A stretch of 64,000 bases of DNA from Actinomyces minihominis (GCF_900187855.1 NZ_FYEG01000005.1:62001-126000), one strand, 5' to 3'. Positions 42,994 through 59,217 are shown, counted from the stretch's first letter. Numbers and translations: made by a program. Notes: generated by a model from the sequence alone, not told the origin.

Positions 42994-45750
42994 CTAGTTC
43001 TCTAGCTTCGGTGCTGCGTCAATCTTGTAGTCGAACAGCTTGTACTTGTCGATGGCTTGCTGCAGGACCGAGTGGTCCAACTTGCCGTCGTAGACCAGGC
43101 CCTGCAGGACGCGGACTGCCGTTGACTCAGCGTCAACATGGAAGTAGCGACGTGCCGCGCGACGGGTATCGGAAATACCGAAACCATCGGTACCAAGGGT
43201 CAGGTAGCGACCTGGGATCCAGGGGCGGATCTGGTCGTGAACCATCGAGGTCCAGTCGGAGGTTGCCACGAACGGACCTTCGGAACCCGCAAGCTTCTGG
43301 GAGACATAGGGGTGGCGGTACTCTTCATTCGGGTGGAGGAAGTTGTGCTCATCAGCGGCAACTCCGTCCCGACGCAGTTCGTTCCAGGAGGTCACAGACC
43401 ATACAGCCGCATCGACGCCCCAGTCATCTGCCAGGAGTTGACGGGCCTCGCGAGCCCACGGAACACCCACGCCCGAGGCCAGGATCTGGGCCTTCAGGCC
43501 ACCGCTGTTGGTGTGGTCATCAACCTTGTAGATACCGCGTAGAACGCCCTCGACATCCAGGTTCTCCGGTTCAGCGGGCTGAACGATGGGCTCGTTGTAG
43601 ACCGTGATGTAGTAGAGAATGTTGGGATCGCGGGGATCATCCTTGCCAAACATACGCTGGATGCCATCCTTGAAGATGTACTTCATTTCGTATGCGTAGG
43701 CGGGGTCATAGGAGACGAAGCCGTCATTGGTCGAAGCGAGAAGTTGCGAGTGCCCATCGAGGTGCTGCAAGCCCTCACCAGTTAGAGTGGTGCGACCGGC
43801 GGTTGCCCCGATGACGAAGCCTTTTGCCAGCATGTCTGCGGCAGCCCAGAACTGATCGCCCGTCCTCTGGAACCCGAACATCGAGTAGAAGATGTACACC
43901 GGCAGCAGCGGGATGTTGTGCGTGGTGTAGGCGGTACCGGCCACCTGGAGCGCAGCGGCAGAGCCAGCCTCGGTAATACCGGTGTGCAGAATCTGCCCCT
44001 CGGTCGACTCCTTGTACGACAGCATCATGTCTGCGTCAACGGAGGTGTAGTTCTGGCCGTGGGTGTTGAAGATCTTCGCCGACGGGAAGATGGAATCCAG
44101 ACCGAAGGTCCGAGCCTCATCCGGGATGATCGGCACAACGTACTTGCCGACTTCCTTGTCTCGCATCAGGTCCTTGAGAGCACGGACAAACGCCATGGTC
44201 GAGGCGACCTTCTGGCTGCCCGAACCCTTAGCCAGGGACTTGAACGGCTTCTCAGGAATCGTCTCCCACTTGGGGTTGTTCGGAAGACGCTCGGGCAGGT
44301 AGCCGCCCAGCGCCTCACGCCGTTCCTTCATGTAGAGCAGGGCCGGGTCGTCATCGGCCGGACGGTAGTAGGGCGGGATGCCCGGGTTCTTGTCGAGCTC
44401 TTCATCAGAGATCGGAATCTGCAGGCGGTCACGCAGCAACTTGGCGTCGTCAGCCGACAGTTTCTTCATCTGGTGGGTTGCGTTGCGGCCTGCGAAGGAC
44501 GGCCCGAGGGCATAACCCTTAATTGTGTGAGCCAGGATGACCGTGGGCTGTCCGGTGTGCTCCATGGCTGCCTTGTAGGCGGCAAAGAGCTTGCGGTAGT
44601 CGTGGCCGCCGCGACGCAGATCCCAGATCTGGTCATCGGTCCAGTTCTCAACCATCGCCTTGGTGCGGGGGTCGCGACCGAAGAAGTGCTCACGCACGTA
44701 GGCGCCATCATTAGCGCGGAACGTCTGGTAGTCACCATCCAGGGTCTGGTTCATGATGTTGACGAGGGCGTGGTCCTTGTCTGCGGCGAGCAGCTGGTCC
44801 CAGCCCCGACCCCAGATAACCTTGATGACGTTCCAGCCGGCACCCTTGAAGAATGCTTCCAGTTCCTGGATGATCTGGCCGTTACCGCGAACCGGTCCGT
44901 CAAGGCGCTGCAGGTTGCAGTTGACGACGAAGGTGAGGTTATCGAGACCCTGGACCGCAGCCATCTGAAGAAGGCCACGTGACTCTGGCTCATCCATCTC
45001 ACCGTCACCGATGAAGGCCCAGGTGTGCTGCTGGCTGGTGTCTTTCAGACCGCGTAGGTGCAAGTACTTGTCAACCCATGCCTGGTAGATGGCGGCGGCC
45101 GGTCCGAGACCTAGGGAAACCGTGGGGTACTCCCAGAACCAGTCCATCTGGCGGGGGTGGGGGTACGAGGGGAGACCGTGGTCAGTTGAGGCCTGCTGGC
45201 GGAATCCGTCGAGGTCGTCCTCATCGAGACGTCCTTCCACGAAGGCGCGGGCGTAGTTTCCAGGGGAAGCGTGGCCCTGGAAGAAGACGTGGTCGCCGCC
45301 GCCCGGGTGGTGCTTACCGCGGAAGAAGTGGTTGAAACCGACCTCGTAGAGAGTCGCAACCGAAGCATAAGAAGAGATGTGACCGCCGACGCCAACCCCC
45401 GGACGCTGAGCTCGAGTCACCATGGCCGCTGCGTTCCAGCGGATCCACATGCGGTATCGCTTCTCCATTGCCTCATCACCGGGGAAGTAGGGCTCCTGCT
45501 CCACCGGGATCGAGTTAATGTAGGGCGTCGTGGTCTCAAGCGGGATCGAGACGTCACGACGGCGCGCCTCATCGAGCATATGTAGAAGCAAGTAGCGTGC
45601 GCGCGGCGCACCCTTCTCAGCAATAAGGCCCTCGAGCGAGTCGATCCATTCCTGTGTTTCATCAGGATCGTTGTCGGGTACTTGACTGAGCATTCCGTTT
45701 ACAACGGGCCTATTCAGGGGACTCAACGTAAACCACATCCTTGAAGTCAT
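42994..45750 (-). CDS. aceE: Pyruvate dehydrogenase E1 component, homodimeric type
   Basis: Thiamine-diphosphate enzyme that decarboxylates pyruvate and passes the acetyl group to E2. The family landmarks include [17 protein letters not shown] near the N-terminus, [42 protein letters not shown], the ThDP site [12 protein letters not shown] and [22 protein letters not shown]. The 918-residue length agrees with actinobacterial AceE (about 900). The ATG at 45750 with GGTGA upstream is chosen; an ATG 57 bases in is possible. It is divergent from the DUF3052 gene, the arrangement known in mycobacteria. Confidence 0.97.
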
Positions 45751-46597: not shown

Positions 46598-46674
46598 GGG
46601 CCTATAGCTCAGTTGGCTAGAGCGCCACGTTTACACCGTGGATGTCGGGGGTTCGAGTCCCTCTGGGCCCACCA
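46598..46674 (+). tRNA. tRNA-Val (anticodon TAC)
   Basis: A complete 77-base cloverleaf: acceptor GGGCCTA with TGGGCCC (one G-U pair), D-arm AGCTCAGTTGGCTAGAGC, anticodon stem CCACG/CGTGG around TTTACAC with TAC in positions 34-36, T-arm GGGGGTTCGAGTCCCTC, and an encoded CCA. It reads valine GUA/GUG codons. It borders the defence/phage region, and tRNA 3' ends are common integration sites. Confidence 0.97.
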
Positions 46675-46678
46675 CTTG

Positions 46679-46710
46679 GACACCTCTTTGGATACAAAGG
46701 GGTGTCTTTT
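46679..46710 (+). terminator. Terminator after tRNA-Val
   Basis: GACACCTCTTTG and CAAAGGGGTGTC form a 12-bp stem with one G-U pair around GATA, followed by TTTT. Confidence 0.8.
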
Positions 46711-46906
46711 GGTTTTCTGTGACGCTGGGGCTGGTTTTGCGTGTAGTTCTGCGGTTCTGCGGCGTCCGCACAACTTCTCTGCATGTCTTAATTGGCGCTT
46801 CTAGGTGGCCACACGGTCTCAACGAGTTCCCGGTTCGAATGTGGCGAGACGTCCTGCTGGTTCGGTTGCACCCGGGGTGGGTGCAGGAGCGGTGGGAAAC
46901 GCGCGG

Positions 46907-46957
46907 CGTCAAAAGGTATAGGCAAACGTCAAAAGGTTCGGGCCATCGTCAAATCGT
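46907..46957. repeat. Three direct repeats with exact 20-bp period
   Basis: CGTCAAAAGGT begins at 46907 and again at 46927, and CGTCAAATCGT at 46947. The exact 20-base phasing places them on one face of the helix. They lie in the otherwise empty 247-base gap between the tRNA terminator and the Abi-C gene. They could be integrase arm-type or excisionase sites of an element inserted at the tRNA, or iteron-like protein sites. Confidence 0.55.
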
Positions 46958-47767
46958 TCACTTTTTCGCTATATGTCCCCTTTCTAGATGCGTGGCCCAC
47001 AGGTAGTCCACGAGCGCAAGGGAAACCCCGGCAGCAAGGCGCGCATGCCGCTCGGACAACCCCATGTAAGAAGCTGATTTTCCATGGCCGATCCCGTAAC
47101 TGTTGCGTAGTTCTGCTAGATGTCTCGCGACGCTTGCCAGGCTGCCAAGTAAGGCTTTGACCGCGTTTACATCGGGGACATCATTCTTGACTTCCCGAGG
47201 GTTGATTGAGAGGACTGTCTGGGTCCTATCTACCAGTTTCGGCACGTCGTCGTGCTTTTCGTATTCGACACCGTTGCGTTCTAGGATCGTCTTACAACAG
47301 GACTCGATGAGCTCTTTGGCGATGCCAATCGACGCAGTTGGGTGCGTACTAGCTTTCTCCCATAACAGGGTCCGCTGCTCATCGAGGTAATCGCTAGTGA
47401 AGCCTTTACTTTTGAGGCGTTCTCCTATGCCGTCATCGCTAAACTGTGCAGATATTTCGGCTAGAATCGCATAGCAACGTGCGGCTAGCTTGGTCGACGT
47501 GTCATCTGCATTTTCACTCCGCACACTCTCCCATTCCTTCATGAGCGCATGAAGAAGCTTTGCCGAATCAACACGGTCGGCGGACTCCATGAAGGCTTGG
47601 AGAGATTTGCCTTTGGAGAGTCCGTAGTGCTCGATCAGCCTGATCCCGACAATCGAGTATGTGAATCGATCGAAATCGTCGTTGCGAAAGTCTAGGACGT
47701 AACCACCTTCGTTCAGCAAGTCCATGAACGGCCGATATTCGCCGTATTTCAGTGGGTTCGTCGTCAC
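46958..47767 (-). CDS. Abi-C family abortive infection protein
   Basis: A 269-residue protein whose C-terminal quarter fits the Abi_C (abortive infection C-terminus) family: LLGSLASVARHLAELRNSYGIGHGKSASYMGL, with the conserved RN-x(3)-GxGHG motif, then a helix ending in VDYLWATHLERG. This RN..H pattern is reminiscent of HEPN-type RNase motifs (R-x(4-6)-H), so RNA cleavage is conceivable; that is inference. A central segment (PTASIGIAKELIESCCKTILERNG) is also typical of the family. The start is a GTG with GGGAGA upstream. It is on the leftward strand beside the tRNA, separated from the large operon by 384 bases. Confidence 0.8.
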   Translation of the reverse strand: MTTNPLKYGEYRPFMDLLNEGGYVLDFRNDDFDRFTYSIVGIRLIEHYGLSKGKSLQAFMESADRVDSAKLLHALMKEWESVRSENADDTSTKLAARCYAILAEISAQFSDDGIGERLKSKGFTSDYLDEQRTLLWEKASTHPTASIGIAKELIESCCKTILERNGVEYEKHDDVPKLVDRTQTVLSINPREVKNDVPDVNAVKALLGSLASVARHLAELRNSYGIGHGKSASYMGLSERHARLAAGVSLALVDYLWATHLERGHIAKK

Positions 47768-48151
47768 TACATGTCTCCCTAGGTCTTTTGTCGGACGAGT
47801 TCTATCACAATAGAAATGTCGTAATTAGGAATGGGACGTACGACCCAGGACTGCTAATAGGGACCCACCCGCTAAGCCAGTTCCCTCCACCGGACCTCGG
47901 TAGCGGTCTGCGTTGTTGTTCGCCCAGAGTTAACCGTCATCCTCGCGCACGTACCCCAAAACTCTGGTGAGAATCTCCCTTCTCTGCCTTCCCATAATGG
48001 GTTCTTCTCTTACAAGATGCCCATGCACCTAGGGCAATGCCGCGGGTAAGACATCATGTCGCGACGGTCGGTGGATAAGCTCGATTGCCACGCGCGAGAC
48101 AAATTCTCAGCAGAGTGAAGCGATCGAACGTAGATCCGTACGCGCTCACGA
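47768..48151. other. Gene-free gap between the Abi-C gene and the defence operon
   Basis: No open frame with a credible start and no clear hairpin terminator is seen. The first 80 bases are relatively A/T-rich and probably hold the Abi-C promoter (a leftward TAGAAC near 47805 is a weak -10 candidate). Confidence 0.4.
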
Positions 48152-51100
48152 CTAGCTCATGTTCTTGATTGATGCCTTGATATGCTCTTGCTCAGCCGTC
48201 GTCAGGCCGTAGAGATCAAAAAGCTGTTGGTCGACATCCGCTAGGTCCGCATTCCAGTCGATTCGAGAGTCGTCAGAAAAATCCACGAGAGGGACGAATC
48301 TGTAGGTCTGCTTCGTGCCGTGCTGGCTAGCCTTCGCTTGTGAATGGAGGAACCTTGCAAACCTGGTCTTAAGGTATGCAGCCAGGTGGTTGGCGGTATC
48401 TTCGGTCAAACTCATATCTGCGCCAACAACCAGGTACGTCTCAGTGCATATCTCCCCGGGTTGCCCCAACAGAGTATTCTGGTTGTCGTCATTTAGCTCG
48501 GTGCCTATGTTGTTGGATTCAGGCACAAAGACTTTCCATTCGTCAATCCATCCTCTGTGTGAAGCGACTTCATCTCGTTCGACGTAGCCAATCTTTCCTG
48601 CTCGTCCGAAACACCGAACGGCATCGCGTAAGCCCTTCGCGCTGCTCCTGAAGCGCGCATCCTTGATGAAGAATGTTCGGAAGCCGAAAGCCTTGGCCGC
48701 CGAGACATGAGACTCGAGGGTGCCCCGGTCAGACATGTTCAACACCTTTTCGACAATGCCTACGCCACGCGTGTCTCGAAGGAATACGCCGAGCCCAAAG
48801 GCGTTGAGTGGTCGCGTCGCAACGTTGGCCGTGCCAGTGCCAACCCGGCTTGTGACTTCCGTTCCACCCTCGTCTAAGGCGTTATAGCTTGTATCACGAA
48901 CGAAGTAACAAATGCCACCACGATTGTTGGTGCCGGGGAATACAGCCTCCGGGCTGAGAAAATCGTGTAAAGCGCTAATGTGACCGTCATCCAGCATGGT
49001 TTCTCGGAACTCCGCCAACTCTTTCCCTTTTCCGCCCGTGTACCACCGGGCCGGAATAACAAAAGAAGAGACTCGGGGATCTAGTGCCGATGCAATGCCA
49101 ACGAACTTCTGGTAAATAGGGCGTGCACTCGAGCCAGCGCCACCGTCGTCTTGGTGGTACGGCGGGTTTCCTACTACTGCACCGAATTTCACGTGTGCGG
49201 CCTCCTCGTCCGGGATGCTTTGTTGGGCGTTGGTCCAGTTTTCAAGGTAGCTTGCGGCTCCGACATATTTGTCTTCGCCATCTTCGCTCTGTATACCGAG
49301 CAGGTCGTAGCTGTTGTACGCTTCTGCGATGTTCTCGGTCTTCAAGCCTAGGATTTCGTAGAACCGCCTCGTGAATTCGTAGGCAATGCTCGAGGTGGGA
49401 ATCGAGTAGATCGAGTCGCGCACCAGGTTCGCGTCCAGGCCCATTTCCCCGGCTAGCCGTTTGTAGGCTGCAACAGCGAACTCGCCCGACTTACTGGCGA
49501 TGTCGAGGAGCTTCTCGCCGTTTAGCAGTGACTGTTTCAGTTGTTCAGCGGGTAGGGCTGCGATCATCTCATCGCACAGCCATTCCGGTGTTCGGACTTC
49601 CGAATCGGAGATCCGACTGAACTTTCCAAGTGCCCGCTGAGCTCGCTCCAAAGGTTGGAGCTCGGCATCGTTCGCGAGCGTGGAGATGTTCTGGATCTTG
49701 TAGTCGAGTCCGCTCAGTTTGAATGGGTCAAATGCGTCGAGCATTCGTCTCAGGACCGACGGTTCCAAGTCGAGGTTCCGGGCAAGACGCCCATCGCTGG
49801 CTTCGATGGCTTCCGTGATGTCGCTGAGTGAAGCGACTGGTTGCGGGTTGAGCAGCGCGAAGAACAACAATCGTTGGTAGTAAGTCTGGAGCTTTTTCTG
49901 AAGCACCATAGTGTTGCCGTCGGTTGGGTCTTCGCTTGGGTCCGGCTTGTCCTCGGGTTTGGATTTGCCGTCGTCGTCTTCAGCGGAGCTGTCACCGGTG
50001 TCGAGGTCATCGCCCTCGCCTTTTGCGGGTTCAACTTCTAGCCCGAGACGACTGCCGATTTCCGCTTGCCGTTCGATCGTGGCCAAGATCTCTGCGTCGG
50101 CTAGGAGAGCGAGATCTATGGGAATGTCCCTTGCTTCGTCTTCGATGCTCCGTTTGTTGTTGTATTCCGCGACGGCTTCGAGGATGTCGCTTGGCTCGAC
50201 TTGGTGAATGCGCCCGGCGTTCAGCGTGATTATTGGGGAAATTCTCAGTTCGTCTGCGATGCGTTCCTTGAGTCGAGTGTTGCCGTTCTTTTCGGTGTTC
50301 GCGTTGTAGATGAGGGATTTGCGTTCCTGCATGCGAAACATGCGGCTCGGGTCGAAATCAACCAGTAGGGTCTGTGGCTTGAGATTCTCGCGAATGGTAG
50401 AGCCGTCGGCAGCTTCGAGTTCCCTGGTGTATTGGTTTTGGAGCCGGAATATGGCCTGGTCGTACTCCTGGGGCGATGCGGTGCCTTTCAGGAACAGCAT
50501 TGTGTCCCACTGTTCGACCGTTGACCCGGTGAGCATCCGGTTGACCGTGAGCGTAATCGTCTTCTGGTCTTCTTCTTCGGCCTTCCTTATGGCGGCCTTG
50601 ACGTCCTCTGGGGTTTTGTAGGAGGTTCCGCCGTCTACACCTGAAATGTTGATGATCTTGTAGTCACTGAGGTTAAGAAACTCGTCCCGGTTGGACTCGA
50701 TGAGTCTTTCCATGGCGTCACATGACGCACAGAAGGGGAGCACGACGACTAGGTGGCGGCACATGTCGCCTTCTTTGATTTTGTCGTAGTTCAGGAAGCC
50801 GAGAACTGAATCGTCCGCTTTGCTTCCGTCGATCACGCGTAGGAGGTCGAGAACCTCGGCTTCATGTTCGAACTGCTTATAGGCTCCTTTGTCGTCCTTG
50901 GTAATGGACTTTGGCTTCAGGAGTGCTGAGAGTCCGTAGGCGGTGCCGCTGGCGCGCAAAGCTTCCATTTTCTTGCGGGACGATTCGTTGGGGTTGAAGG
51001 CGAAACGGACCATTTCTGGGAACCCGAAGTAGGGGTTGTCCCATTCGTTCTGTTCGTGAGCTACATCTGTCAGATTGTGCTGGTCCCAGCGTTGCTGGTC

Positions 51101-52249
51101 GGCGACGATGTCTGTGAACTGGACGAACGATACGATGTCCTCCGGTTCGAACTCTTCGCCCATGAGGATGCGGTAGGGAGTTCCCGACAGATGTAGGCGC
51201 ACCCTCGCGTTCAGCGCTTTTTGGATTTCCGAGTCCGCATCCTGGAGGTCGATGTCCTTATCGTGTTTACTCGCTTTTGCGAGCAACCTTTCGTTGGCCT
51301 TCGCATCTTTCTTACTGAGCACCCTGCCGTACTCCTCGGCTCTCGCTCCGAAGTGGGTTTCGTCAACGATGAGGAGGTCAGCGGTCCGTTCGAAGAGCTG
51401 TCGATGCTTATCCTTGACCGCTTTGCCTTGGAGGTCTTGCAACGTCAGGAAGACCACAGCGGTGCCACCGTTGCCCGTGGTGTCTTCAATAGCGGACGTG
51501 TTGCGGAGGAGTGCGTCGGAGTCGAGGAAGTGGTAGCCCTCAAAATTACCGGCAACCTCGACCGTCTTCTTCCACTCGGACCGGACGTCAGCTTTGGCGG
51601 ACACGATGACCACTAGCTTTGAGTCGATGGCCTTCGCGCAGCAGAGCGACGTGAATGATTTACCGAACCGCATCACCGCATACATGAGGAGGTTACGGCG
51701 CCCCCTCGCAACCGCAACCTTGAACGCATCTACGGCATCAGCCTGATTCGGACGTAAATCCCAGATGGGACCACGCACGTAAGTCTGTGTTTCGGGCAGC
51801 TTGGTCGTAGCGTCGTAGAACGTGTACTTGCCAGGACTCTCTTCGTACGCTGCTCGAATTGATTCGATGGCTGCTGCGACGTCGTCACGTGTAGCGTCTT
51901 GGAAAAACTCGCGGCTCAGGTACGGTAGATGCCTCTCGTGCGCTGCAGATTCAGTGAGTCTGGGGCGGCCTCTGTCGTACTCAATGTAGTGGTGGACCGA
52001 GTGATCCCGGAAGTACACGTCGTCGTTTATGGAGGCGGAGCCGCGAAAGACCTCATCGAGGTTTTCGAAGTGCTCTAGGTTTTCAAACACCTTGCGCCAC
52101 TCAGCCAGGCGTACCGGGACTGGTCTGTAGGTGTCGCCCACTTTCAGGTAGTTGGGGACGGTGTTCGTGGCGAACGCGTATATGTGAGGCTTAACGCGTC
52201 CGACGATAATGCGGTCGAGGACAGACTGGTTCTCAATCTTGGAAGTCAT
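48152..52249 (-). CDS. Single-chain restriction-modification-like protein: GIY-YIG-like, SF2 helicase, N6-adenine methyltransferase
   Basis: A 1365-residue multidomain protein. Residues about 20-50 (HIYAFATNTVPNYLKVGDTYRPVPVRLAEWR) fit the GIY-YIG/T5orf172 nuclease pattern. An SF2 helicase follows: GKS at 196-198 (MRFGKSFTS), DETH at 296-299, SGTP at 355-358 and a motif V-VI region about 575-610. After an acidic linker (745-778) comes an Eco57I-like adenine methyltransferase: TPEWLCDEM (887-895), motif I LLDIASKSGEFA (914-925, atypical) and motif IV NPPY (1028-1031). The remaining 330 residues probably contain target recognition. The arrangement parallels Type ISP enzymes (LlaGI) but with a different nuclease. 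It is last in the six-gene operon, five bases after its partner. Confidence 0.82.
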   Translation of the reverse strand: MTSKIENQSVLDRIIVGRVKPHIYAFATNTVPNYLKVGDTYRPVPVRLAEWRKVFENLEHFENLDEVFRGSASINDDVYFRDHSVHHYIEYDRGRPRLTESAAHERHLPYLSREFFQDATRDDVAAAIESIRAAYEESPGKYTFYDATTKLPETQTYVRGPIWDLRPNQADAVDAFKVAVARGRRNLLMYAVMRFGKSFTSLCCAKAIDSKLVVIVSAKADVRSEWKKTVEVAGNFEGYHFLDSDALLRNTSAIEDTTGNGGTAVVFLTLQDLQGKAVKDKHRQLFERTADLLIVDETHFGARAEEYGRVLSKKDAKANERLLAKASKHDKDIDLQDADSEIQKALNARVRLHLSGTPYRILMGEEFEPEDIVSFVQFTDIVADQQRWDQHNLTDVAHEQNEWDNPYFGFPEMVRFAFNPNESSRKKMEALRASGTAYGLSALLKPKSITKDDKGAYKQFEHEAEVLDLLRVIDGSKADDSVLGFLNYDKIKEGDMCRHLVVVLPFCASCDAMERLIESNRDEFLNLSDYKIINISGVDGGTSYKTPEDVKAAIRKAEEEDQKTITLTVNRMLTGSTVEQWDTMLFLKGTASPQEYDQAIFRLQNQYTRELEAADGSTIRENLKPQTLLVDFDPSRMFRMQERKSLIYNANTEKNGNTRLKERIADELRISPIITLNAGRIHQVEPSDILEAVAEYNNKRSIEDEARDIPIDLALLADAEILATIERQAEIGSRLGLEVEPAKGEGDDLDTGDSSAEDDDGKSKPEDKPDPSEDPTDGNTMVLQKKLQTYYQRLLFFALLNPQPVASLSDITEAIEASDGRLARNLDLEPSVLRRMLDAFDPFKLSGLDYKIQNISTLANDAELQPLERAQRALGKFSRISDSEVRTPEWLCDEMIAALPAEQLKQSLLNGEKLLDIASKSGEFAVAAYKRLAGEMGLDANLVRDSIYSIPTSSIAYEFTRRFYEILGLKTENIAEAYNSYDLLGIQSEDGEDKYVGAASYLENWTNAQQSIPDEEAAHVKFGAVVGNPPYHQDDGGAGSSARPIYQKFVGIASALDPRVSSFVIPARWYTGGKGKELAEFRETMLDDGHISALHDFLSPEAVFPGTNNRGGICYFVRDTSYNALDEGGTEVTSRVGTGTANVATRPLNAFGLGVFLRDTRGVGIVEKVLNMSDRGTLESHVSAAKAFGFRTFFIKDARFRSSAKGLRDAVRCFGRAGKIGYVERDEVASHRGWIDEWKVFVPESNNIGTELNDDNQNTLLGQPGEICTETYLVVGADMSLTEDTANHLAAYLKTRFARFLHSQAKASQHGTKQTYRFVPLVDFSDDSRIDWNADLADVDQQLFDLYGLTTAEQEHIKASIKNMS

Positions 52250-52254
52250 TACTG

Positions 52255-53184
52255 CTAGTTCCCGTCAGCCAGTGCGGCGAATGTGGTTGTTTTCTTACCC
52301 CGCCAGTCTCGAATGCGGCACAGGGCCGCTTTCTTATCTTCCGCGGGCGTGTCGAAGAGTGTAGGGAGTAATTCTGGCGAGGATGGCTCGTGGAATGGGG
52401 GTGCTTGTGTGAATGCGTCCATTTGCCAAAGGTTCCAAGAGATGACCCGGGCAACCCTGCGCAGTTCGTCCCGGCTGGGTTCCCGCCTCAGGGCCGCGCG
52501 CGCGTAGTCGGTGTAACTGGCTAGGATGTTCTCCCTGGCTAATAGAAGGCTGTCGCCTTGAAGCTCGAAGCCATAAATGCTCTGAACCGCCCGAAGGGAC
52601 CAATTCAGCCATTCCTCTTCGGACGTGGTGTTTTCTTGGACGACACGCATCTTGCGGTCCAGCAGACCTATGCGTCTCTCAAGTTTGATGGGAGCACCGG
52701 TTGTGGCATCGTAGCGGCTTACCAAGTAGGGGGCCTCCCCGCAGGCGACCTCCATCCGCCGCTCGTCCACGTAGCGCTTCCACGAGCGCGGCCCGGCGTC
52801 CTCGAAATCGATGAGGTCCCGGTTAGTGCGCCATCCGTTCTTTGTGGGCCTGTTGAACACATTGGGACGACCAAACCACGCTTCGTCCACTAAGTTGTTT
52901 TGTTCGTTGCAAAGCCACGACGGTGTGAACACTTCCGCCCGCTCTTTGGTTCGCCCAAGCTGGTGGTGTTCAACCTTCTCGACGCGCGGTTGGAGTATCC
53001 CCGCGTTTTCGCCCGTGATTGCATCGACCGTGATCTCGTCTTCGGCGCCGAACCCGCTACCGCGCGATGCGTGGTCTTCGGTTGCCCAGACAATGTTTCG
53101 GCCGGTGGTGTTGTCTCGCAACAAGAGTTTGAGCAGCGTTGGATCCCTCTCCAGAAGGGCTTGTTCATCAACGTCGACCAGCAT
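52255..53184 (-). CDS. Restriction 'subunit M'-like partner protein
   Basis: A 309-residue protein that I recognise only as the short companion often found next to large helicase-methyltransferase proteins and loosely labelled restriction endonuclease subunit M. The motif RAEVFTPSWLCNEQNNLVDEAWFG (about 82-105) echoes the TPEWLCDEM segment of the downstream large protein. CGEAPYLVSRYD, RRIGLLDRKMRVV and VISWNLWQMDAF are other striking blocks. There is no NPPY motif and no SAM-binding loop, so it cannot be a complete methyltransferase. It overlaps the XRE gene upstream by 17 bases and precedes the large gene by five; it probably forms a complex with it. Confidence 0.65.
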   Translation of the reverse strand: MLVDVDEQALLERDPTLLKLLLRDNTTGRNIVWATEDHASRGSGFGAEDEITVDAITGENAGILQPRVEKVEHHQLGRTKERAEVFTPSWLCNEQNNLVDEAWFGRPNVFNRPTKNGWRTNRDLIDFEDAGPRSWKRYVDERRMEVACGEAPYLVSRYDATTGAPIKLERRIGLLDRKMRVVQENTTSEEEWLNWSLRAVQSIYGFELQGDSLLLARENILASYTDYARAALRREPSRDELRRVARVISWNLWQMDAFTQAPPFHEPSSPELLPTLFDTPAEDKKAALCRIRDWRGKKTTTFAALADGN

Positions 53185-53395
53185 CTGCGGTACCTTCCTT
53201 GGCCAGTTCGCAAATGTCGCCGATTTGGCAGTCGAGAGCGACGCATATACGGATCAGAGTGTCTGTGGTGACGGTTCCGCCCTTTCCGAGTTTCGCCATC
53301 GTTGATGGGGATACACCTGCCTTGGCTTGGAGCTGGGTCTTGTTCAAGTTTTTGTCTATCAAAAGTTTCCAGAGCTTGTTGTAGCTGAGCCTCAC
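53168..53395 (-). CDS. Small XRE-family helix-turn-helix regulator
   Basis: A 75-residue protein that is almost only a helix-turn-helix domain: NKTQLQAKAGVSPSTMAKLGKGGTVTTDTLIRICVALDCQIGDI. The GTG at 53395 is preferred over an in-frame TTG at 53425 because it has AGAGGAA six bases before it and overlaps the upstream stop as GTGA. It resembles the controller proteins of restriction-modification systems. Its position in the middle, between the ABC-3C genes and the restriction-like genes, suggests it controls the whole operon or its distal half. Confidence 0.88.
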   Translation of the reverse strand: MRLSYNKLWKLLIDKNLNKTQLQAKAGVSPSTMAKLGKGGTVTTDTLIRICVALDCQIGDICELAKEGTADAGRR

Positions 53396-55074
53396 TGATC
53401 GTTCCTCTTGTCCTTGGTATTCCAAACCCGTCCGTAAAGAGCCGCCTCACCCTCGCCGACTTCAATGACGGTATGTTCCTGGACGATGTCCCGGGTTCCT
53501 GGTGTGTAAGACACGGCCTTGTCGAAGGCAACGAAGATTTGCACACCGAGGGCCGCCGCCTCAACATACAGCTTCATGATTTCTTCGACAGGCTGGTCAC
53601 CGATGTTCTTGATGATTGGAGAGTCATGAATGATTGCGGGCAGCGCGGTTAGGGACGCGATTGCCAGGTCGAAGACGATTAGGTTCTTCGCCGTCGTTCC
53701 ATCGCCCGTGTCGCGGGGAGTGCCGTACGTGTACCTCTGTCCACCGTTAGATGTCTCTTTGAGTTCGAATATCGGCGGATACTGGGCCCCGTCGTAGATT
53801 CGGTCATTTAGTTCCTCCAGCCTTTTGTTTAGGCTGCTGGTCATCTCCTGCAGCAGTTCGGGGCGTCTTCTCGCCAGCTCGTCAGCGGCCTCTTTTGCCT
53901 CATCCTTAGCGTCTTCGGTCGCCTCCCAGGCGTCTGCCTGTGCGCGTAGTCTCTGGATCTCTGCCTTCAGGGTCCCGGCTCTGTCAAGTTCTGCGTCGTT
54001 GAGGTTGGAGGAGACGTTGATGGAAGCCATTTGGGCTCGGACCAAGTTGATCTGTTGGTCGAGCATATCGGCCAGTTTCTGGTAGCGGATTTCTTGCTCG
54101 TCCAGTTCCCGTTCCAAGATGCCCGCCAGGCGATAGTGGAAGCCCTCGATTTCCCGCAGACTCACGATGTTGGCTTCTGGGAAGAATGCCTGAAGTTGGC
54201 TGATGTCTTCGGTGTCGATCTGAGGAGTTCCGATTCGGCTTGCTTCGATTACAGCGAGTTTAGCGCCGGTGGTTTTCCTGTCGGTGATCAGCGAGTTTAG
54301 TTGAGCGGAGAGTCGTGCCTTCTCTTCAGCACCGGCCATGTCCTCGTCGAAGAGGCGCTGATCCGCGCCCGCACGAAGGTTCTCAAGTTCTGTTTCTGCT
54401 TCTTTTAGTCGGGTCTGTGCCTTCTTGTAGTTAGTCTTGGTGCGCAGGGTGATGTAGTCGCTCAGTCCTAACCGTGCTGCGGCTTTCAGGGTTGTAAGTC
54501 GCTCCTGGGCTTTGTCGTTGCGGTCTTGGAGCTCTTTGATTGGCTGGTAGACTCCGAACAGTTTTTCCAGCGCTTCGATGTCTGCGACAGCACGGCTATC
54601 CCCGACCTTGAGTGGTTTGGAGTATGCGATGTCATCCTTTTCGTGGACTCTGGAGAACCTGCCGAATGCTCCGCGCCAGCTCAGGTCGGGGTCGGTCAAC
54701 TTGTATTCGTCCTTGAGGAACTTCCGGAACTCGTTGAGTGACCATTCGTCCTCGCGCGTCCTGTAGTGCTTATCGGCGTACACCTGCACATACCCGGGTC
54801 GTGAGGTGTCGCGGCTGAAGTAGTACTCCCTGTCCGCGAACTGGAAGGTGAAGTAGATAGTGTGGTCGCTTACAGCGAAGGGTTCGACGGTCTTGGATTT
54901 GGCGAAGTCGTCGCCACCGAAAGCGAAATCGATTATCAGCAGGGTGGTGGATTTGCCAATGGAGTTGGCCGCGTTCTTGGTGCCCTGGATTATGTTCAAG
55001 CCGGGGCCGAAGCGAATGTGCTGGTCTCGGCCCTTGTACGAGGCAAACTCGGGTACATAGATTTCAAGCAGCAA
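53392..55074 (-). CDS. SMC-like ATPase with DUF2326 domain (ABC-3C system ATPase)
   Basis: A 560-residue ABC-type ATPase of the RecF/SMC/Rad50 group. The P-loop is NSIGKSTTLL (37-46), unusual in having an asparagine-serine lead. Residues about 200-450 are charged helices predicted as a coiled coil (AQTRLKEAETELENLRAG; ELDEQEIRYQKLADMLDQQ; RAGTLKAEIQRLRAQADAWEA). The C-terminal half is DUF2326: NLIVFDLAIASLTALPAIIHDSP, where the HDSP box stands in the Walker B region. Such ATPases are the core of ABC three-component conflict systems. The start is a TTG with GGAG upstream. It overlaps the middle component by 11 bases and the XRE gene by four. Confidence 0.85.
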   Translation of the reverse strand: MLLEIYVPEFASYKGRDQHIRFGPGLNIIQGTKNAANSIGKSTTLLIIDFAFGGDDFAKSKTVEPFAVSDHTIYFTFQFADREYYFSRDTSRPGYVQVYADKHYRTREDEWSLNEFRKFLKDEYKLTDPDLSWRGAFGRFSRVHEKDDIAYSKPLKVGDSRAVADIEALEKLFGVYQPIKELQDRNDKAQERLTTLKAAARLGLSDYITLRTKTNYKKAQTRLKEAETELENLRAGADQRLFDEDMAGAEEKARLSAQLNSLITDRKTTGAKLAVIEASRIGTPQIDTEDISQLQAFFPEANIVSLREIEGFHYRLAGILERELDEQEIRYQKLADMLDQQINLVRAQMASINVSSNLNDAELDRAGTLKAEIQRLRAQADAWEATEDAKDEAKEAADELARRRPELLQEMTSSLNKRLEELNDRIYDGAQYPPIFELKETSNGGQRYTYGTPRDTGDGTTAKNLIVFDLAIASLTALPAIIHDSPIIKNIGDQPVEEIMKLYVEAAALGVQIFVAFDKAVSYTPGTRDIVQEHTVIEVGEGEAALYGRVWNTKDKRNDQ

Positions 55075-55288
55075 TCTGGATCACTCCGTCCGCGTTCATC
55101 TCGATTTTTCTCAATGCGTACAGCACGGTGAGTGCTTCGATGAACCGGTAGGTTCCGCGCTCGTCGTCGCAGAAGCGCTCATTGAGGACTGTAAGCGGGG
55201 TGCCCTCCGGTTCGATCTGGGACAAAACTGGTGCCAGATCAGCCAACGTAGAGTTGTCGAAGCTGGTGAGCTTGCTAGGAAGCCGCAT
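55064..55288 (-). CDS. ABC-3C middle component (small protein)
   Basis: A 74-residue protein: RLPSKLTSFDNSTLADLAPVLSQ, RGTYRFIEALTVLYALRKIEMN. The size, helical content and position between the C-terminal-type protein and the DUF2326 ATPase match the middle component of ABC three-component systems, of the short wHTH-like kind. The ATG at 55288 is chosen; the open frame reaches 55348 but overlaps the upstream gene heavily. It overlaps both neighbours (14 and 11 bases). The identification is by position and general pattern. Confidence 0.7.
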   Translation of the reverse strand: MRLPSKLTSFDNSTLADLAPVLSQIEPEGTPLTVLNERFCDDERGTYRFIEALTVLYALRKIEMNADGVIQIAA

Positions 55289-56420
55289 GCTGCACCTCGA
55301 AAACCTCGCAGATTTGGACGAAGTAAGAGACCAAAACGGCGCATACATGTTCGCGGTGTCCGGTTCGTTTCTGAACCCATTGAGTTAGGGCATCGAACGT
55401 GTCCGGTTGGGACGCGCTGGAACCAGCAAGTTCCAGGTAACGTCCGTTCATTTGGTTGCTCAGAAGACGAAAGTGGAGCTTGTTTTGAATTTCCAGGTCG
55501 CTCATGTATGAGTGCATCGTTGCGAAGTAGGTTGTCATCGCATCCCTAACTTGCAGCTGGAGCATTGGGTGGTTCTTGATCTTGGCTTCGATAGCCACAG
55601 GATCGTAATTAGGGTCGGAAGTGGCAGCGGGTAGCTGTTCTGCGGTTAGTTGCGAGACTTTGCTCAAGAGGTCAGCCAGTTGCCGCTCGAGGTTCAACGG
55701 AACCATCGCTTCTATCAGAAGTGCCTCTTCACTCGTGAGCTTTGCTTTGGTGGCGCGGATGCGTTTCTGTTCTTCGAGCGACGGATCTGCTTGGTAGGAG
55801 GTCGCGCATTGGGGGCACATCACCACAAAGTCATCAAAACCTGGGTCCGCGCAGTTGGCGTCTATTAGCACTATCTCCGATACCGGCGCGCGGTTCGAAC
55901 CGGCGGCCACACTTAGTGATCGGCCGCATGACGCGCAGCCGCGGGCTTGTAGATATAGGGCGCGGGTGTTCTTGGCGGTGGCATTTGCTATCCGGAGGTT
56001 GCGTGCCGCTGTTTCTGGCCGGATGTCTAGTTTGGCCTTCTTGATCAAGAACTCTTGGGCGATCTGGGCGCACACGACGCTGACGTTGGCTACATCGACG
56101 TCGTGCATGCCGTGGCTGTCCAGGCAGGAGACGACTTGTCTTTTTGCAGGTACCGGGGCGTTGTCGATGACGCTGATGAAGTTGCCGAGGTCAATGCAAT
56201 TGAATATAGCGTTCGCCAGCTTCTTGGTGAACGACCGGTCGCTGGAGAAGATTTTCCGCTTGGTCTCATCGCTGGCAAGGACACTCGGGTCATCGCGAGT
56301 GTTCCACTTGTCCTCTGGCACGCTCGTCAGCATCGAAATGACCTCGGCGACATGCTCAGTGCCGTTGTTACCTTTGCCCGTAACTGGCAGCAGGCACTTC
56401 AGTAGGTCACAAAACCGCAC
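55275..56420 (-). CDS. ABC-3C system zinc-ribbon C-terminal-type protein
   Basis: First gene of the leftward operon, 381 residues. Two CxxC pairs (Cys162/Cys165 in RGCASCGRSL and Cys202/Cys205 in VMCPQCATSY) form a probable zinc ribbon. The N-terminal 60 residues and the C-terminal 150 are helical without recognised catalytic residues. In ABC-3C systems this third component is the effector or scaffold and varies in N-terminal domain; the ribbon could bind nucleic acid. The start is a GTG with AAAGGTGG upstream. The immediately following middle component overlaps it. The family assignment is from context and partial resemblance. Confidence 0.65.
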   Translation of the reverse strand: MRFCDLLKCLLPVTGKGNNGTEHVAEVISMLTSVPEDKWNTRDDPSVLASDETKRKIFSSDRSFTKKLANAIFNCIDLGNFISVIDNAPVPAKRQVVSCLDSHGMHDVDVANVSVVCAQIAQEFLIKKAKLDIRPETAARNLRIANATAKNTRALYLQARGCASCGRSLSVAAGSNRAPVSEIVLIDANCADPGFDDFVVMCPQCATSYQADPSLEEQKRIRATKAKLTSEEALLIEAMVPLNLERQLADLLSKVSQLTAEQLPAATSDPNYDPVAIEAKIKNHPMLQLQVRDAMTTYFATMHSYMSDLEIQNKLHFRLLSNQMNGRYLELAGSSASQPDTFDALTQWVQKRTGHREHVCAVLVSYFVQICEVFEVQHAAS

Positions 56421-56820
56421 CTACGCCACCTTTCTCCAGTTTCTCCCTGCTTCTCCCCAGGGCTGCTCCCTCTATCTCCCCGGACACCGCAGACCCAAAA
56501 ATACTGTTGGTTCTGACGGCTGAGCCACGATTATTCGAGGGCGCGCACTTCAAATAGTACGCGTTCCTCTGGGTGTTCGCAGAGTAAAACTCCACGAACG
56601 CATGATCCGCGGGTTGGTTGTCCGGAGTAGCTGGTGGTGGCCACCTTCAGTTGCTGTGTAGGCCCAGGCGTAGCTAATCGGGGCTGTCCTAGAGATCAGC
56701 GGGAGACACGTTCGAGCAGCTGCGGCGCCTACTCACCTTGAGTGGGCGCCGCAGTGCGTTTGAGCGTCCTCCTGCGGGATCAACACAACTGGATACCAAT
56801 CGAACGGGTCTCCCTTCCAC
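56421..56820. other. Gene-free boundary between the defence operon and the phage module
   Basis: A 400-base gap. The left part is strongly pyrimidine-rich on the plus strand (a purine-rich leader for the leftward operon). No open frame is credible. The promoters for both the leftward operon and the rightward phage genes must lie here; AATAAT-like -10 candidates near 56530 are seen, without convincing -35 boxes. Confidence 0.4.
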
Positions 56821-57405
56821 ATGGAAGGGGCCAGGCCCTTGGGAACCAACAAGCAAACCCAAACTCTCAAGATCCGCTACGAGAAAACCGAGGGCGTGCG
56901 GGAGTCCTCGTCCTGCATTTACGCCGAAGTGGAGGTGGACTCTGCAGAGGTCGACGTGTTCGTGGAGAACGTCCACCAGGAGCGCCTGCGCAAGGCCGAA
57001 GATCCCAGCTCGGTTGTCCGCTGGAGCGCGGACGAGACGGTGCGCGAGGTTCTCAACAAGCCCGAATACAACCAGGCGAAGAAGTATCTGCGCCACACCG
57101 CCTATGAAGCCACACCAGACGGGGACGGCGAAATCTCAGCCGTCGAGGCGTCGCTGACGTCGGGTGGTTATCTCGCTCAGGCGGGCGGGGTTGACCCGGC
57201 TGATTCCTGGGTGGGGGAGATGACGATCTGGGATGCGATCAACTCCCTGCCGCCTCGTGACAAAGCGATTCTCGTGGACGTGCGCTTGAACGGGCTGACC
57301 CAGGTTGAGGCCGCCGCGAAGTACGGGGTATCCCAGCCCCGCATCCAACAACTTCTCGCCCGCTCAATCAAGAGGCTGGGGGCGATCTTGCGTGAGGGGT
57401 TATAA
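56821..57405 (+). CDS. Sigma-70 region-4-like phage regulator
   Basis: A 194-residue protein. The C-terminal third is a helix-turn-helix of sigma-factor region 4 type: IWDAINSLPPRDKAILVDVRLNGLTQVEAAAKYGVSQPRIQQLLARSIKRL. The N-terminal part (KIRYEKTEG..SSCIYAEVEVDS) is not recognisable. There is no sigma region 2, so it is not a full sigma factor; similar proteins start the early gene cluster of gram-positive prophages and act as transcription activators. The ATG at 56821 lacks a ribosome-binding site; a TTG at 56839 has GGAAGGGG upstream and may be the real start. Confidence 0.75.
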   Translation: MEGARPLGTNKQTQTLKIRYEKTEGVRESSSCIYAEVEVDSAEVDVFVENVHQERLRKAEDPSSVVRWSADETVREVLNKPEYNQAKKYLRHTAYEATPDGDGEISAVEASLTSGGYLAQAGGVDPADSWVGEMTIWDAINSLPPRDKAILVDVRLNGLTQVEAAAKYGVSQPRIQQLLARSIKRLGAILREGL

Positions 57406-57416
57406 ACCGGTCCTTC

Positions 57417-57477
57417 TCGAAGCCCTCTTAGTAGCGGAGCCAGTGGGTGGTTTCGCTCCTAAGAGGAAGGAAATACG
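57417..57477 (+). promoter_or_regulatory. Structured leader with shared TCGAAGCCCTCT motif
   Basis: TCGAAGCCCTCT (57417-57428) recurs at 62198-62209 before the antirepressor gene. Here CCTCTTAG (57424-57431) pairs with CTAAGAGG (57459-57466) and an inner GAGC/GCTC adds to the hairpin; its 3' arm abuts the GGAAGG ribosome-binding site, so it may control translation. Confidence 0.5.
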
Positions 57478-57711
57478 ATGCGACACAAACTAAAAGTCCG
57501 CGTCAACGCAGGTGGGGGAGACGCCGGGCGCGTGGTCGGAGTCAACAGGATGGCTCTGCCCCGCAGGCTATACAAGCGCATTTTCGGTGGCGAACGCCGG
57601 GTAGCGGTTCTGCTGCCAGGAGTGACCGTTGATGAGGTCACCATCGTCGAGCGCGACGATCTGACTGACGTGGCTGAGGCCGCAGGTGTCATGGGTGGTG
57701 GTCCTAAGTGA
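57478..57711 (+). CDS. Small phage protein, unknown
   Basis: A 77-residue protein that I do not recognise. The N-terminus is basic (RHKLKVRVN), the middle has a hydrophobic strand pair (RVAVLLPGVTVDEVTIVERDD) and the tail is glycine-rich. AGGAAGG precedes the ATG. The last four bases overlap the next gene (GTGA), so it belongs to the phage operon. Confidence 0.65.
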   Translation: MRHKLKVRVNAGGGDAGRVVGVNRMALPRRLYKRIFGGERRVAVLLPGVTVDEVTIVERDDLTDVAEAAGVMGGGPK

Positions 57712-58088
57712 TCCCGATTTCAGCAGCGAACAAGATCATCGACGGCATCACCCAGATCAACGAAGGACTTGCTGAGCTTTCACGCTGGGTTGAAGCCCGG
57801 GCCTTCGATGGGATTGAGGATGAGTACGCGTTGGCGGGCGAACGCCCCCACCCGCCAGTAGAGGTTCCAGGAACAACGCCGCCTGCTAGTGCTGCCGAAC
57901 CGGAGCCTCACGAGTCGCCAGTGACTTTGGTGGAGGTTCGCACGGCCCTGTCGGCCCTGTCGCAGGCGGGGGAGACCGACCAGGGGCGCAGCCTGATTGA
58001 AGCGACCGGAGCGGACAAGCTCAGTGCGGTTCCCCAGGACAAGTACACGTGGTTGATGGCACGGGCGAAAGAGATCGGCAATGCCTGA
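57708..58088 (+). CDS. Phage replication-module protein, function unknown
   Basis: A 126-residue protein. The N-terminus is helical (AANKIIDGITQINEGLAELS), the centre is proline/glutamate-rich, and the C-terminus (TLVEVRTALSALSQAGETDQ, IEATGADKLSAVPQDKY) resembles the small SAP-like or HeH-like domain of short proteins encoded before DUF2800 genes in gram-positive phages, often mislabelled as rRNA biogenesis protein Rrp5. Possibly DNA-binding. GTG start overlapping the gene before, and an eight-base overlap with DUF2800 after. Confidence 0.65.
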   Translation: MIPISAANKIIDGITQINEGLAELSRWVEARAFDGIEDEYALAGERPHPPVEVPGTTPPASAAEPEPHESPVTLVEVRTALSALSQAGETDQGRSLIEATGADKLSAVPQDKYTWLMARAKEIGNA

Positions 58089-59217
58089 CCAACACGCCAT
58101 GCTCAGTGCTTCGGGTGCGCACCGGTGGATGAACTGTCCCCCCAGCGCCGTCCTCGAATCCGGCGAACCCGGGTCGACCTCTGACGCTGCCGAACAAGGT
58201 ACTGCCGCGCATGCCCTGGCGGAGCACAAGTTGCGTAAGGCATTGAAGCAGCGATCCAAACGGCCAGTGTCCTCGTGGCAGGACGATGAAATGGATGAGC
58301 ACACCACCGACTACGCGGCATTCGTCCTCGAACAGTTGGCTGCGGCGAGGGCGACCTGTCCCGACGCGCAGCTCTTGATCGAGCAGCGCCTGGACTTCAG
58401 CCATTTGGTTCCGGGTGGTTTCGGGACCGGCGACGCAGTGATCATCGCTGAACCCCGCCTGCAGATCATCGACCTGAAATACGGGCTGGGAGTCTTGGTT
58501 GAGGCTGAGCGCAATGCCCAGTTGATGCTGTACGCCCTCGGAGCGCTCCACGCGTTCGAACCGCTCTACGACATCACCGAGGTTTCGGTGACTATCTTCC
58601 AGCCCCGGCGCGGCAACGTCTCCACCTGGACCATCACCACAGAGGAACTCCTGGCATGGGCGGAGGAAGAAGTGGTGCACAGAGCTGCTCTGGCTGCTGA
58701 GGGTGCGGGCGAGTTTCGCTCAGGCTCTTGGTGTCAGTTCTGCCGATTGGCTCCGACCTGTAGAGCGCGGGCGGAGGCCAACCTGGAATTAGCCAAGCTC
58801 GAGTTCGCGCCACCTGCGGAGTTGACAGATGCGGAGATCGCGGAGGTCCTCACCCAGATCCCGCTGCTCACCAAGTGGGCATCCGATGTGGAGGCTTACG
58901 CGGCTTCGTTGGCGATCAACCAAGGGAAGCAGTGGCCCGGATTCAAGGTCGTGGCTGGCCGGTCAGTCCGCAAATACATGGACGAGACGGCTGTCGCTGA
59001 GGCCGCGGAGGCTGCGGGCTACGCGGACATCTACGACCGGAGACTCATCGCCCTCACGGCGATGGAAAAACTCATGGGCAAGAAGACCTTCACCGAGATC
59101 CTCGGCGACCTGGTCTTCAAACCCAGCGGGAAACCAACCTTGGTTCCCGACACCGACAAGCGACGCGCCCTTGACATCCGGAGCGCCGGAGACGAATTCA
59201 CAAAAACACAAAAGTAG
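58081..59217 (+). CDS. DUF2800 protein (Cas4/RecB-like nuclease fold)
   Basis: A 378-residue protein typical of phage replication modules. LSASGAHRWMNCPPSAVLE and EQGTAAHALAEHKL give the N-terminal RecB/Cas4-like pattern, the core GFGTGDAVII..LQIIDLKYGLGVLVEA has the D-x(n)-DxK-like active site, and the cysteines in CPP and in WCQFCRLAPTCRARAE could hold an iron-sulphur cluster as in Cas4/AddB. It probably processes DNA ends during phage replication or recombination. The DUF2815 gene follows after 14 bases, its constant partner. Confidence 0.9.
   Translation: MPDQHAMLSASGAHRWMNCPPSAVLESGEPGSTSDAAEQGTAAHALAEHKLRKALKQRSKRPVSSWQDDEMDEHTTDYAAFVLEQLAAARATCPDAQLLIEQRLDFSHLVPGGFGTGDAVIIAEPRLQIIDLKYGLGVLVEAERNAQLMLYALGALHAFEPLYDITEVSVTIFQPRRGNVSTWTITTEELLAWAEEEVVHRAALAAEGAGEFRSGSWCQFCRLAPTCRARAEANLELAKLEFAPPAELTDAEIAEVLTQIPLLTKWASDVEAYAASLAINQGKQWPGFKVVAGRSVRKYMDETAVAEAAEAAGYADIYDRRLIALTAMEKLMGKKTFTEILGDLVFKPSGKPTLVPDTDKRRALDIRSAGDEFTKTQK

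What the first reader, a model, noticed from the sequence alone, without database searches (positions are those of the whole stretch)
48152..52249. GIY-YIG-like nuclease + SF2 helicase + NPPY methyltransferase in one 1365-residue chain
Seen: a GIY-YIG-like N-terminus, GKS/DETH/SGTP helicase motifs, an acidic linker, then NPPY methyltransferase with an atypical motif I (DIASKSGEFA instead of a glycine-rich loop). Known: Type ISP enzymes use an Mrr-like nuclease at the N-terminus. The different nuclease and divergent SAM loop make the architecture unusual.
Basis: partly seen in the sequence, partly recalled or inferred. Interest (0 to 1): 0.72.

Follow-up and report, generated by a model that had tools for sequence, protein, structure and literature searches.

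The report
Split methyltransferase with GIY-YIG restriction motor
A bacterial DNA-cutting and DNA-marking defence enzyme of the little-studied DrdVI kind turns out to keep the part that binds the methyl donor in a separate small neighbouring protein, while the big chain carries a crippled copy of that part; some phages carry the small protein alone, perhaps to disarm the enzyme.

Summary
The ORF at 48152-52249(-) is real: 1365 aa with a GIY-YIG (T5orf172-type) N-terminus, an SF2 motor and a gamma-type NPPY methyltransferase with a C-terminal region taken as its target-recognition domain. It is not isolated: PADLOC's REase_MTase_IIG model matches the full length (1520 bits), and relatives occur in hundreds of genomes. 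The closest characterised system is DrdVI (pDrdVI), whose M1 and M2 genes methylate GCAGCC.

The SAM-binding half (motifs X, I, II, III; no NPPY) is the separate upstream gene 52255-53184(-), called A here. The KSG loop belongs to K, a degenerate duplicate half that has also lost the motif II acid. All 138 separate A ORFs lack NPPY; K is canonical only where A is absent; A and the NPPY half (B) co-occur in 44 of 788 genomes with no true exception; A fuses to B, without K, several independent times; phage orphan methyltransferases keep A+B and drop K. AlphaFold models show A-B and K-B each folding as a complete m6A methyltransferase: A and K are alternative halves for one catalytic half. Some phages carry A alone under purifying selection. 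That A and K swap on B (methylate versus restrict) is inferred, not shown.

The parts
52255..53184 (-). Gene A (309 aa): SAM-binding half of the methyltransferase; motif X AEVFTP (83-88), motif I EVACGEAPYL (145-154), motif II YGFE (204-207), motif III NLWQMDAF (251-258); no NPPY and no recognition region
   Evidence: (PADLOC MTase_II PDLC03390, 320.8 bits)
48152..52249 (-). Large chain (1365 aa): GIY-YIG nuclease + SF2 motor + degenerate K half + catalytic B half with C-terminal recognition region
51758..52249 (-). N module, residues 1-164: GIY-YIG nuclease of the T5orf172/MUG113 type
49610..51757 (-). H module, residues 165-880: SF2 helicase-like motor (RFGKS, DETH, SGTP, motif VI) and coupling region with acidic linker (745-777)
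49211..49609 (-). K module, residues 881-1013: degenerate N-terminal methyltransferase half; motif I replaced by K-S-G, motif II acid missing
48155..49210 (-). B module, residues 1014-1365: catalytic half with NPPY (1028-1031) and C-terminal presumed target-recognition region
53168..53425 (-). Small Cro/C1-type HTH gene overlapping the start of A; probable controller
   Evidence: HTH_26 5.5e-19; similar HTH near A in 29 of 142 A loci

Best explanation
This is a two-gene, fused form of a DrdVI-type restriction-modification system. One m6A methyltransferase is assembled from two proteins: the small protein A supplies the SAM-binding half (motifs X-III), and the C-terminal module B of the large chain supplies the NPPY catalytic half and target recognition. 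The K module between motor and B is a degenerate duplicate of the SAM half that keeps the fold but should not bind SAM in the canonical way. The N-terminal GIY-YIG nuclease and SF2 motor of the same chain carry out ATP-driven restriction of unmodified DNA. Shown by computation here: domain content, complementary motif loss, strict A-B co-occurrence, repeated A-B fusion, predicted folds. Shown by others for the relative DrdVI: m6A at GCAGCC by the cloned M1-2 genes. Inferred: that A docks on B in trans in this organism, that nuclease and motor are active, and what K does.
For: (1) A keeps motif I Gly (142/142 readable) and motif II acid (142/142), and 0 of 138 separate A ORFs have an NPPY-like motif; B has NPPY in 168 of 177. 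(2) K has Lys at the first Gly of motif I in 145 of 156 modules and lacks the motif II acid; the six K modules with canonical GxG are exactly loci without A. (3) 130 loci with degenerate K have A; of 14 without, 11 start at a contig edge, one is interrupted, one decayed, one (L124) is a real exception. (4) A and B genome by genome: 44 of 788 genomes in two phyla have both; the three apparent exceptions were a contig end, a frameshifted A and a weakly scoring A. (5) A-B single chains in canonical order beside a separate N-H-K chain (L142, L145, L151, L217, L218, L219), A | B | N-H-K split loci, and an intermediate A | N-H-K | B (L157); A-B fusions are polyphyletic on the tree. (6) Orphan phage methyltransferases keep A+B without K (L135, L136, L139, phage FNU4). 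(7) AlphaFold: A-B fusion pLDDT 88.9, pTM 0.86, best VIA match CamA Z 18.5; K-B pLDDT 92.6, pTM 0.90, CamA Z 19.8, M.TaqI 19.5. (8) DrdVI on pDrdVI has A | K-B | N-H, and M1-2.DrdVI expressed in E. coli ER2796 gives m6A at GCAGCC, a site with a single adenine over both strands (PMC6430315).
Against: No complex of A with the large chain was modelled. K-B alone is predicted to fold confidently, so in this chain A would have to displace K or use another copy of B. It is not shown that K cannot bind SAM. The paper on DrdVI does not say that M1 alone or M2 alone is inactive. Restriction activity is untested here.
Confidence: 0.8

Rival explanations
1. One reading: K-B in the large chain is a complete, active methyltransferase that binds SAM through an unusual K-S-G loop, and A is an accessory or regulatory subunit.
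For: K-B is predicted to fold as a complete methyltransferase with high confidence, and K keeps motif X and the overall sequence.
Against: K lost the first motif I Gly and the motif II acid together, only where A is present. A-B fusions and phage orphan methyltransferases keep A, not K.
Confidence: 0.12
2. A and K-B are two separate methyltransferases, as the M1/M2 names and the separate PADLOC models suggest, each acting on one strand or site.
For: Database naming: PADLOC has separate MTase_II models for A and B; M1/M2 names for DrdVI in PMC4996451.
Against: A has no catalytic motif in 138 of 138 cases; the DrdVI site GCAGCC has only one adenine over both strands (PMC6430315); A and B are fused in canonical motif order several times.
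Confidence: 0.03
3. The system defends without cutting, as BREX does, or cuts methylated DNA, and the GIY-YIG domain has another role.
For: BrxX/PglX is among the closest folds of both models, and cleavage by this family was not shown in the papers read.
Against: The GIY-YIG residues Y24, K36, G38, R47, D82 and E114 are invariant in 57 relatives; DrdVI is described as a fused translocase and REase (PMC4996451).
Confidence: 0.05

Closest known systems
DrdVI (M1-2.DrdVI + DrdVI, Deinococcus wulumuqiensis NEB 479, plasmid pDrdVI)
   Same: Same modules: A (212 aa), K-B (539 aa, DPCTKSGVF and NPPY), GIY-YIG + motor (851 aa) in one operon; m6A at GCAGCC (PMC6430315).
   Different: Three genes A | K-B | N-H there; here N-H-K-B is one chain. 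The published records name two methyltransferases and I found no description of a split SAM half.
Type ISP (LlaGI, LlaBIII)
   Same: One long chain with nuclease, SF2 motor, gamma methyltransferase and recognition domain; K-B aligns with LlaGI at Z 19.2 and LlaBIII at Z 17.9.
PADLOC/REBASE 'Type IIG' REase_MTase_IIG PDLC03626
   Same: Full-length match, 1520 bits.
   Different: Type IIG is typically one polypeptide with its own methyltransferase (PMC4752239); here the SAM half is a separate gene.
OspHL35III-type three-protein systems (PMC4752239, S4 Fig C)
   Same: Separate translocase and GIY-YIG endonuclease with a gamma methyltransferase.
   Different: Methyltransferase described as MmeI-like and not as split; not compared here at sequence level.
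METTL3-METTL14-type pairs and split M.AquI-type enzymes (from memory)
   Same: Two related methyltransferase chains, or one methyltransferase cut in two.
   Different: Here the partner supplies the SAM half only and the catalytic chain keeps a degenerate copy of that half.

Membership tests
DrdVI-type system | A + K-B + GIY-YIG/SF2 modules in one operon | tested here: met
   Module HMMs and pDrdVI
DrdVI-type system | m6A at an asymmetric site | not testable with these tools
   Known for DrdVI (PMC6430315); no methylome of this host
Type IIG | Complete methyltransferase and nuclease in one polypeptide | tested here: not met
   SAM half is in the separate gene A; in-chain half K is degenerate
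Type IIG | Single target recognition domain for both activities | tested here: inconclusive
   Only one NPPY + C-terminal recognition region found, but sharing by nuclease and methyltransferase not testable
Type ISP | N-terminal Mrr-like PD-(D/E)XK nuclease | tested here: not met
   N module is T5orf172/GIY-YIG in relatives
Type ISP | SF2 motor followed by gamma methyltransferase and recognition domain in one chain | tested here: met
   (LlaGI Z 19.2)
GIY-YIG superfamily (T5orf172/MUG113) | GIY / K-x-G / R / E residues and family profile match | tested here: met
   45 of 57 relatives match T5orf172; Y24, K36, G38, R47, E114 invariant and present in the window protein; fold of the window N-terminus not predicted
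Gamma-class N6-adenine methyltransferase | Order X-I-II-III-IV(NPPY)-recognition domain | tested here: met
   Met by A followed by B, as in natural A-B fusions; K-B has the order but with degenerate I and II

The most novel reading that the evidence does not exclude
A and K are mutually exclusive N-terminal halves that compete for the single catalytic/recognition half B. A on B (with SAM) methylates; K on B (without SAM, tethered to the motor and GIY-YIG nuclease) reads the site and licenses restriction. Phages that carry A alone would push the host enzyme into the methylating state and so escape restriction, a Ral-like trick by donating half an active site.
Probability: 0.3. Interest if true: 0.88.

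Novelty: new variant of a known kind. Interest (0 to 1): 0.62.

Why it matters
A widespread family filed as 'Type IIG' or as pairs of 'Type II methyltransferases' appears to contain one methyltransferase split between two genes, with a degenerate copy of the missing half kept in the catalytic chain. If right, two database families are halves of one enzyme, cloning or methylome assignment with one gene alone will fail, and the question of how one recognition module serves both methylation and restriction becomes testable. The phage-borne lone A proteins would be a new class of candidate anti-restriction factor.

Tried and rejected
Lookup of P0001 in genome contigs with a single protein found nothing; an alignment was needed. 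phmmer against PDB found no relative of P0001, and profiles of the N module and of K-B found no credible PDB relative. An AlphaFold test with A and K-B in one read-through chain (L054) was dropped because MAFFT aligned A rows onto K. tRNA-Val as an attachment site: no repeat of 12 nt or more of the tRNA in 46675-58500. Full-text searches for a description of a split m6A methyltransferase or GIY-YIG + helicase + methyltransferase enzyme found none that describe the split; the library holds open-access papers only. A coevolution analysis between A, K and B was considered and not run: too few sequences. Megablast of the gene in E. coli genomes: no match.

Full report
The observation. The ORF 48152-52249(-) is as described: 1365 aa, motifs at the positions given, one copy in a 2.04 Mb genome. 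Pfam sees ResIII and Eco57I. The N-terminus has no Pfam match by itself, but in an alignment of 57 homologous N-termini 45 members match T5orf172 (best 2.1e-11) and 35 match MUG113, and Y24, K36, G38, R47, D82 and E114 are invariant. The GIY-YIG reading is therefore supported by homology; I did not predict the fold of this domain. PADLOC REase_MTase_IIG PDLC03626 covers residues 3-1364 with 1520 bits, so the family is known to the databases.

The missing neighbour. Five bases upstream, on the same strand, 52255-53184 encodes 309 aa that PADLOC calls a Type II methyltransferase. It has motif X (AEVFTP), a motif I (EVACGEAPYL), motif II (YGFE) and motif III (NLWQMDAF), but no NPPY and no recognition region. 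The large chain has NPPY but K-S-G in motif I, and its motif II acid is missing. I name the modules A (small protein), N (nuclease), H (motor), K (K-S-G half) and B (NPPY half with its C-terminal region).

Survey. Module profiles give these arrangements over 169 loci: A | K-B | N-H in 58, A | N-H-K-B in 47 (the window type; the window's own gene is counted twice in the set), A | B | N-H-K in 6, A-B | N-H-K in 3, A | N-H-K | B in 1, with the rest mostly fragments. A always keeps the motif I Gly and the motif II acid where readable (142 of 142), and none of 138 separate A ORFs has an NPPY-like motif. B has NPPY in 168 of 177. K has Lys in place of the first motif I Gly in 145 of 156. The six canonical GxG cases (L146, L147, L152, L153, L160, L163) are all in loci without A. 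Among loci with degenerate K, 130 have A and 14 do not. Of the 14, 11 begin within 350 bp of a contig edge, L002/L169 is interrupted by a recombinase-like gene, L154 is decayed, and L124 is a real exception with an unrelated methyltransferase-like and a 344-aa ORF upstream.

Genome-level co-occurrence. In 396 genomes of the window's phylum A is found in 17 and B in 16; in 392 genomes of a second phylum A in 25 and B in 27 (Fisher p 1e-27 and 2e-37). These genomes are related, so p is only indicative. The three mismatches are a contig end after A (G526), a frameshifted A (G808) and a weak A (G845). So 44 genomes have both and none has only one.

Fusions and the tree. In L142, L145, L151 and in three further genomes (L217, L218, L219) A and B are one chain in the order X-I-II-III-NPPY, with K left at the end of a separate N-H-K chain. 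A tree of the half-domains separates A (with the A of fusions and phage A) from K plus canonical relatives (support 100/99). A of fusions is scattered (at least 5 changes forced by well-supported branches), so A-B joining or splitting happened repeatedly (long branches are present, and the K group labels include a few mislabelled fragments). A likely history is that K-B was once an ordinary methyltransferase whose own SAM half decayed after A took over.

Structure. AlphaFold of the window's K-B (residues 881-1365) gives pLDDT 92.6, pTM 0.90, best VIA matches CamA Z 19.8 (rmsd 5.1-5.7, about 400 residues) and M.TaqI Z 19.5 (rmsd 4.4, 346 residues). The natural A-B fusion of L142 gives pLDDT 88.9, pTM 0.86, best match CamA Z 18.5 (rmsd 5.5, 416 residues, model range 74-681), spanning A and B.

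Known biology. Plasmid pDrdVI of Deinococcus wulumuqiensis NEB 479 carries A (212 aa), K-B (539 aa) and N-H (851 aa). The published methylome lists M1-2.DrdVI, GCAGCC, 6mA, IIG, with the methyltransferase genes cloned in E. coli ER2796 (PMC6430315). GCAGCC has one adenine over both strands, so one methyltransferase suffices. [quoted passage not shown] I found no text that describes M1 and M2 as halves of one enzyme. PADLOC has separate models for A (PDLC03390) and B (PDLC03375), and the L142 fusion matches both in tandem.

Phage-borne pieces. Phage FNU4 (complete genome) and contigs L135, L136 and L139 carry A+B without K, N or H: orphan methyltransferases keep A, not K. Several phage or prophage contigs carry A alone (L194, L197-L199, L201-L207); B is absent from the ten whole contigs searched, and no NPPY ORF lies within about 10 kb in two of them. 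dN/dS of close pairs is about 0.1-0.16, so these lone A proteins are kept by selection. The contigs may be fragments.

Mechanism. Best supported: A and B form one m6A methyltransferase in trans; N and H restrict. Inferred next step: K, tethered to motor and nuclease, is the alternative partner of B and holds it in a non-methylating, site-reading state; A and K alternate, or two copies of B divide the tasks. Lone phage A would then favour methylation. This step has no direct evidence.

Surroundings. The gene pair lies in a defence island between aceE (42994-45750) with tRNA-Val (46598-46674) and a + strand gene at 56821. The island also has an AbiJ-like gene with an Abi_C domain (46958-47767), an HTH gene overlapping A, and an ABC-three-component system (53392-56420).

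Noticed in passing
L194, L197, L198, L199, L201-L207 (IMG/VR contigs); L208 and L209 (phage records): Phage and prophage contigs carry the A protein alone, motifs intact, no B found; close pairs evolve under purifying selection. Candidate anti-restriction factors.
   Followed up: partly
window 53392-56420 (-): ABC-three-component system: DUF2326 ATPase, middle component MC7, CTD11 protein; directly upstream of the restriction genes.
   Followed up: no
window 46958-47767 (-): AbiJ-like protein with Abi_C domain at the tRNA-Val side of the island.
   Followed up: no
L165:6194-8173: A and B are in one frame interrupted by a TGA exactly where relatives have the Trp of IIAWNIWQMD; probably a TGA=Trp code or a nonsense mutation in an A-B fusion.
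   Followed up: no
L054:6860-8368: The catalytic motif reads NLPY instead of NPPY in an otherwise intact K-B gene; probably an inactive methyltransferase.
   Followed up: no
L124:3274-6491: Only intact degenerate-K locus without A; upstream lie an ORF with a TNPPF motif and a 344-aa ORF that looked EcoRI-like by eye.
   Followed up: partly
L169 (G086): K-B gene of a same-family genome has lost its start and A next to a recombinase-like gene.
   Followed up: partly
L008, L009, L211 K-B genes: The linker between K and B often holds a CxxC...H segment that may bind zinc; absent in the window protein.
   Followed up: no
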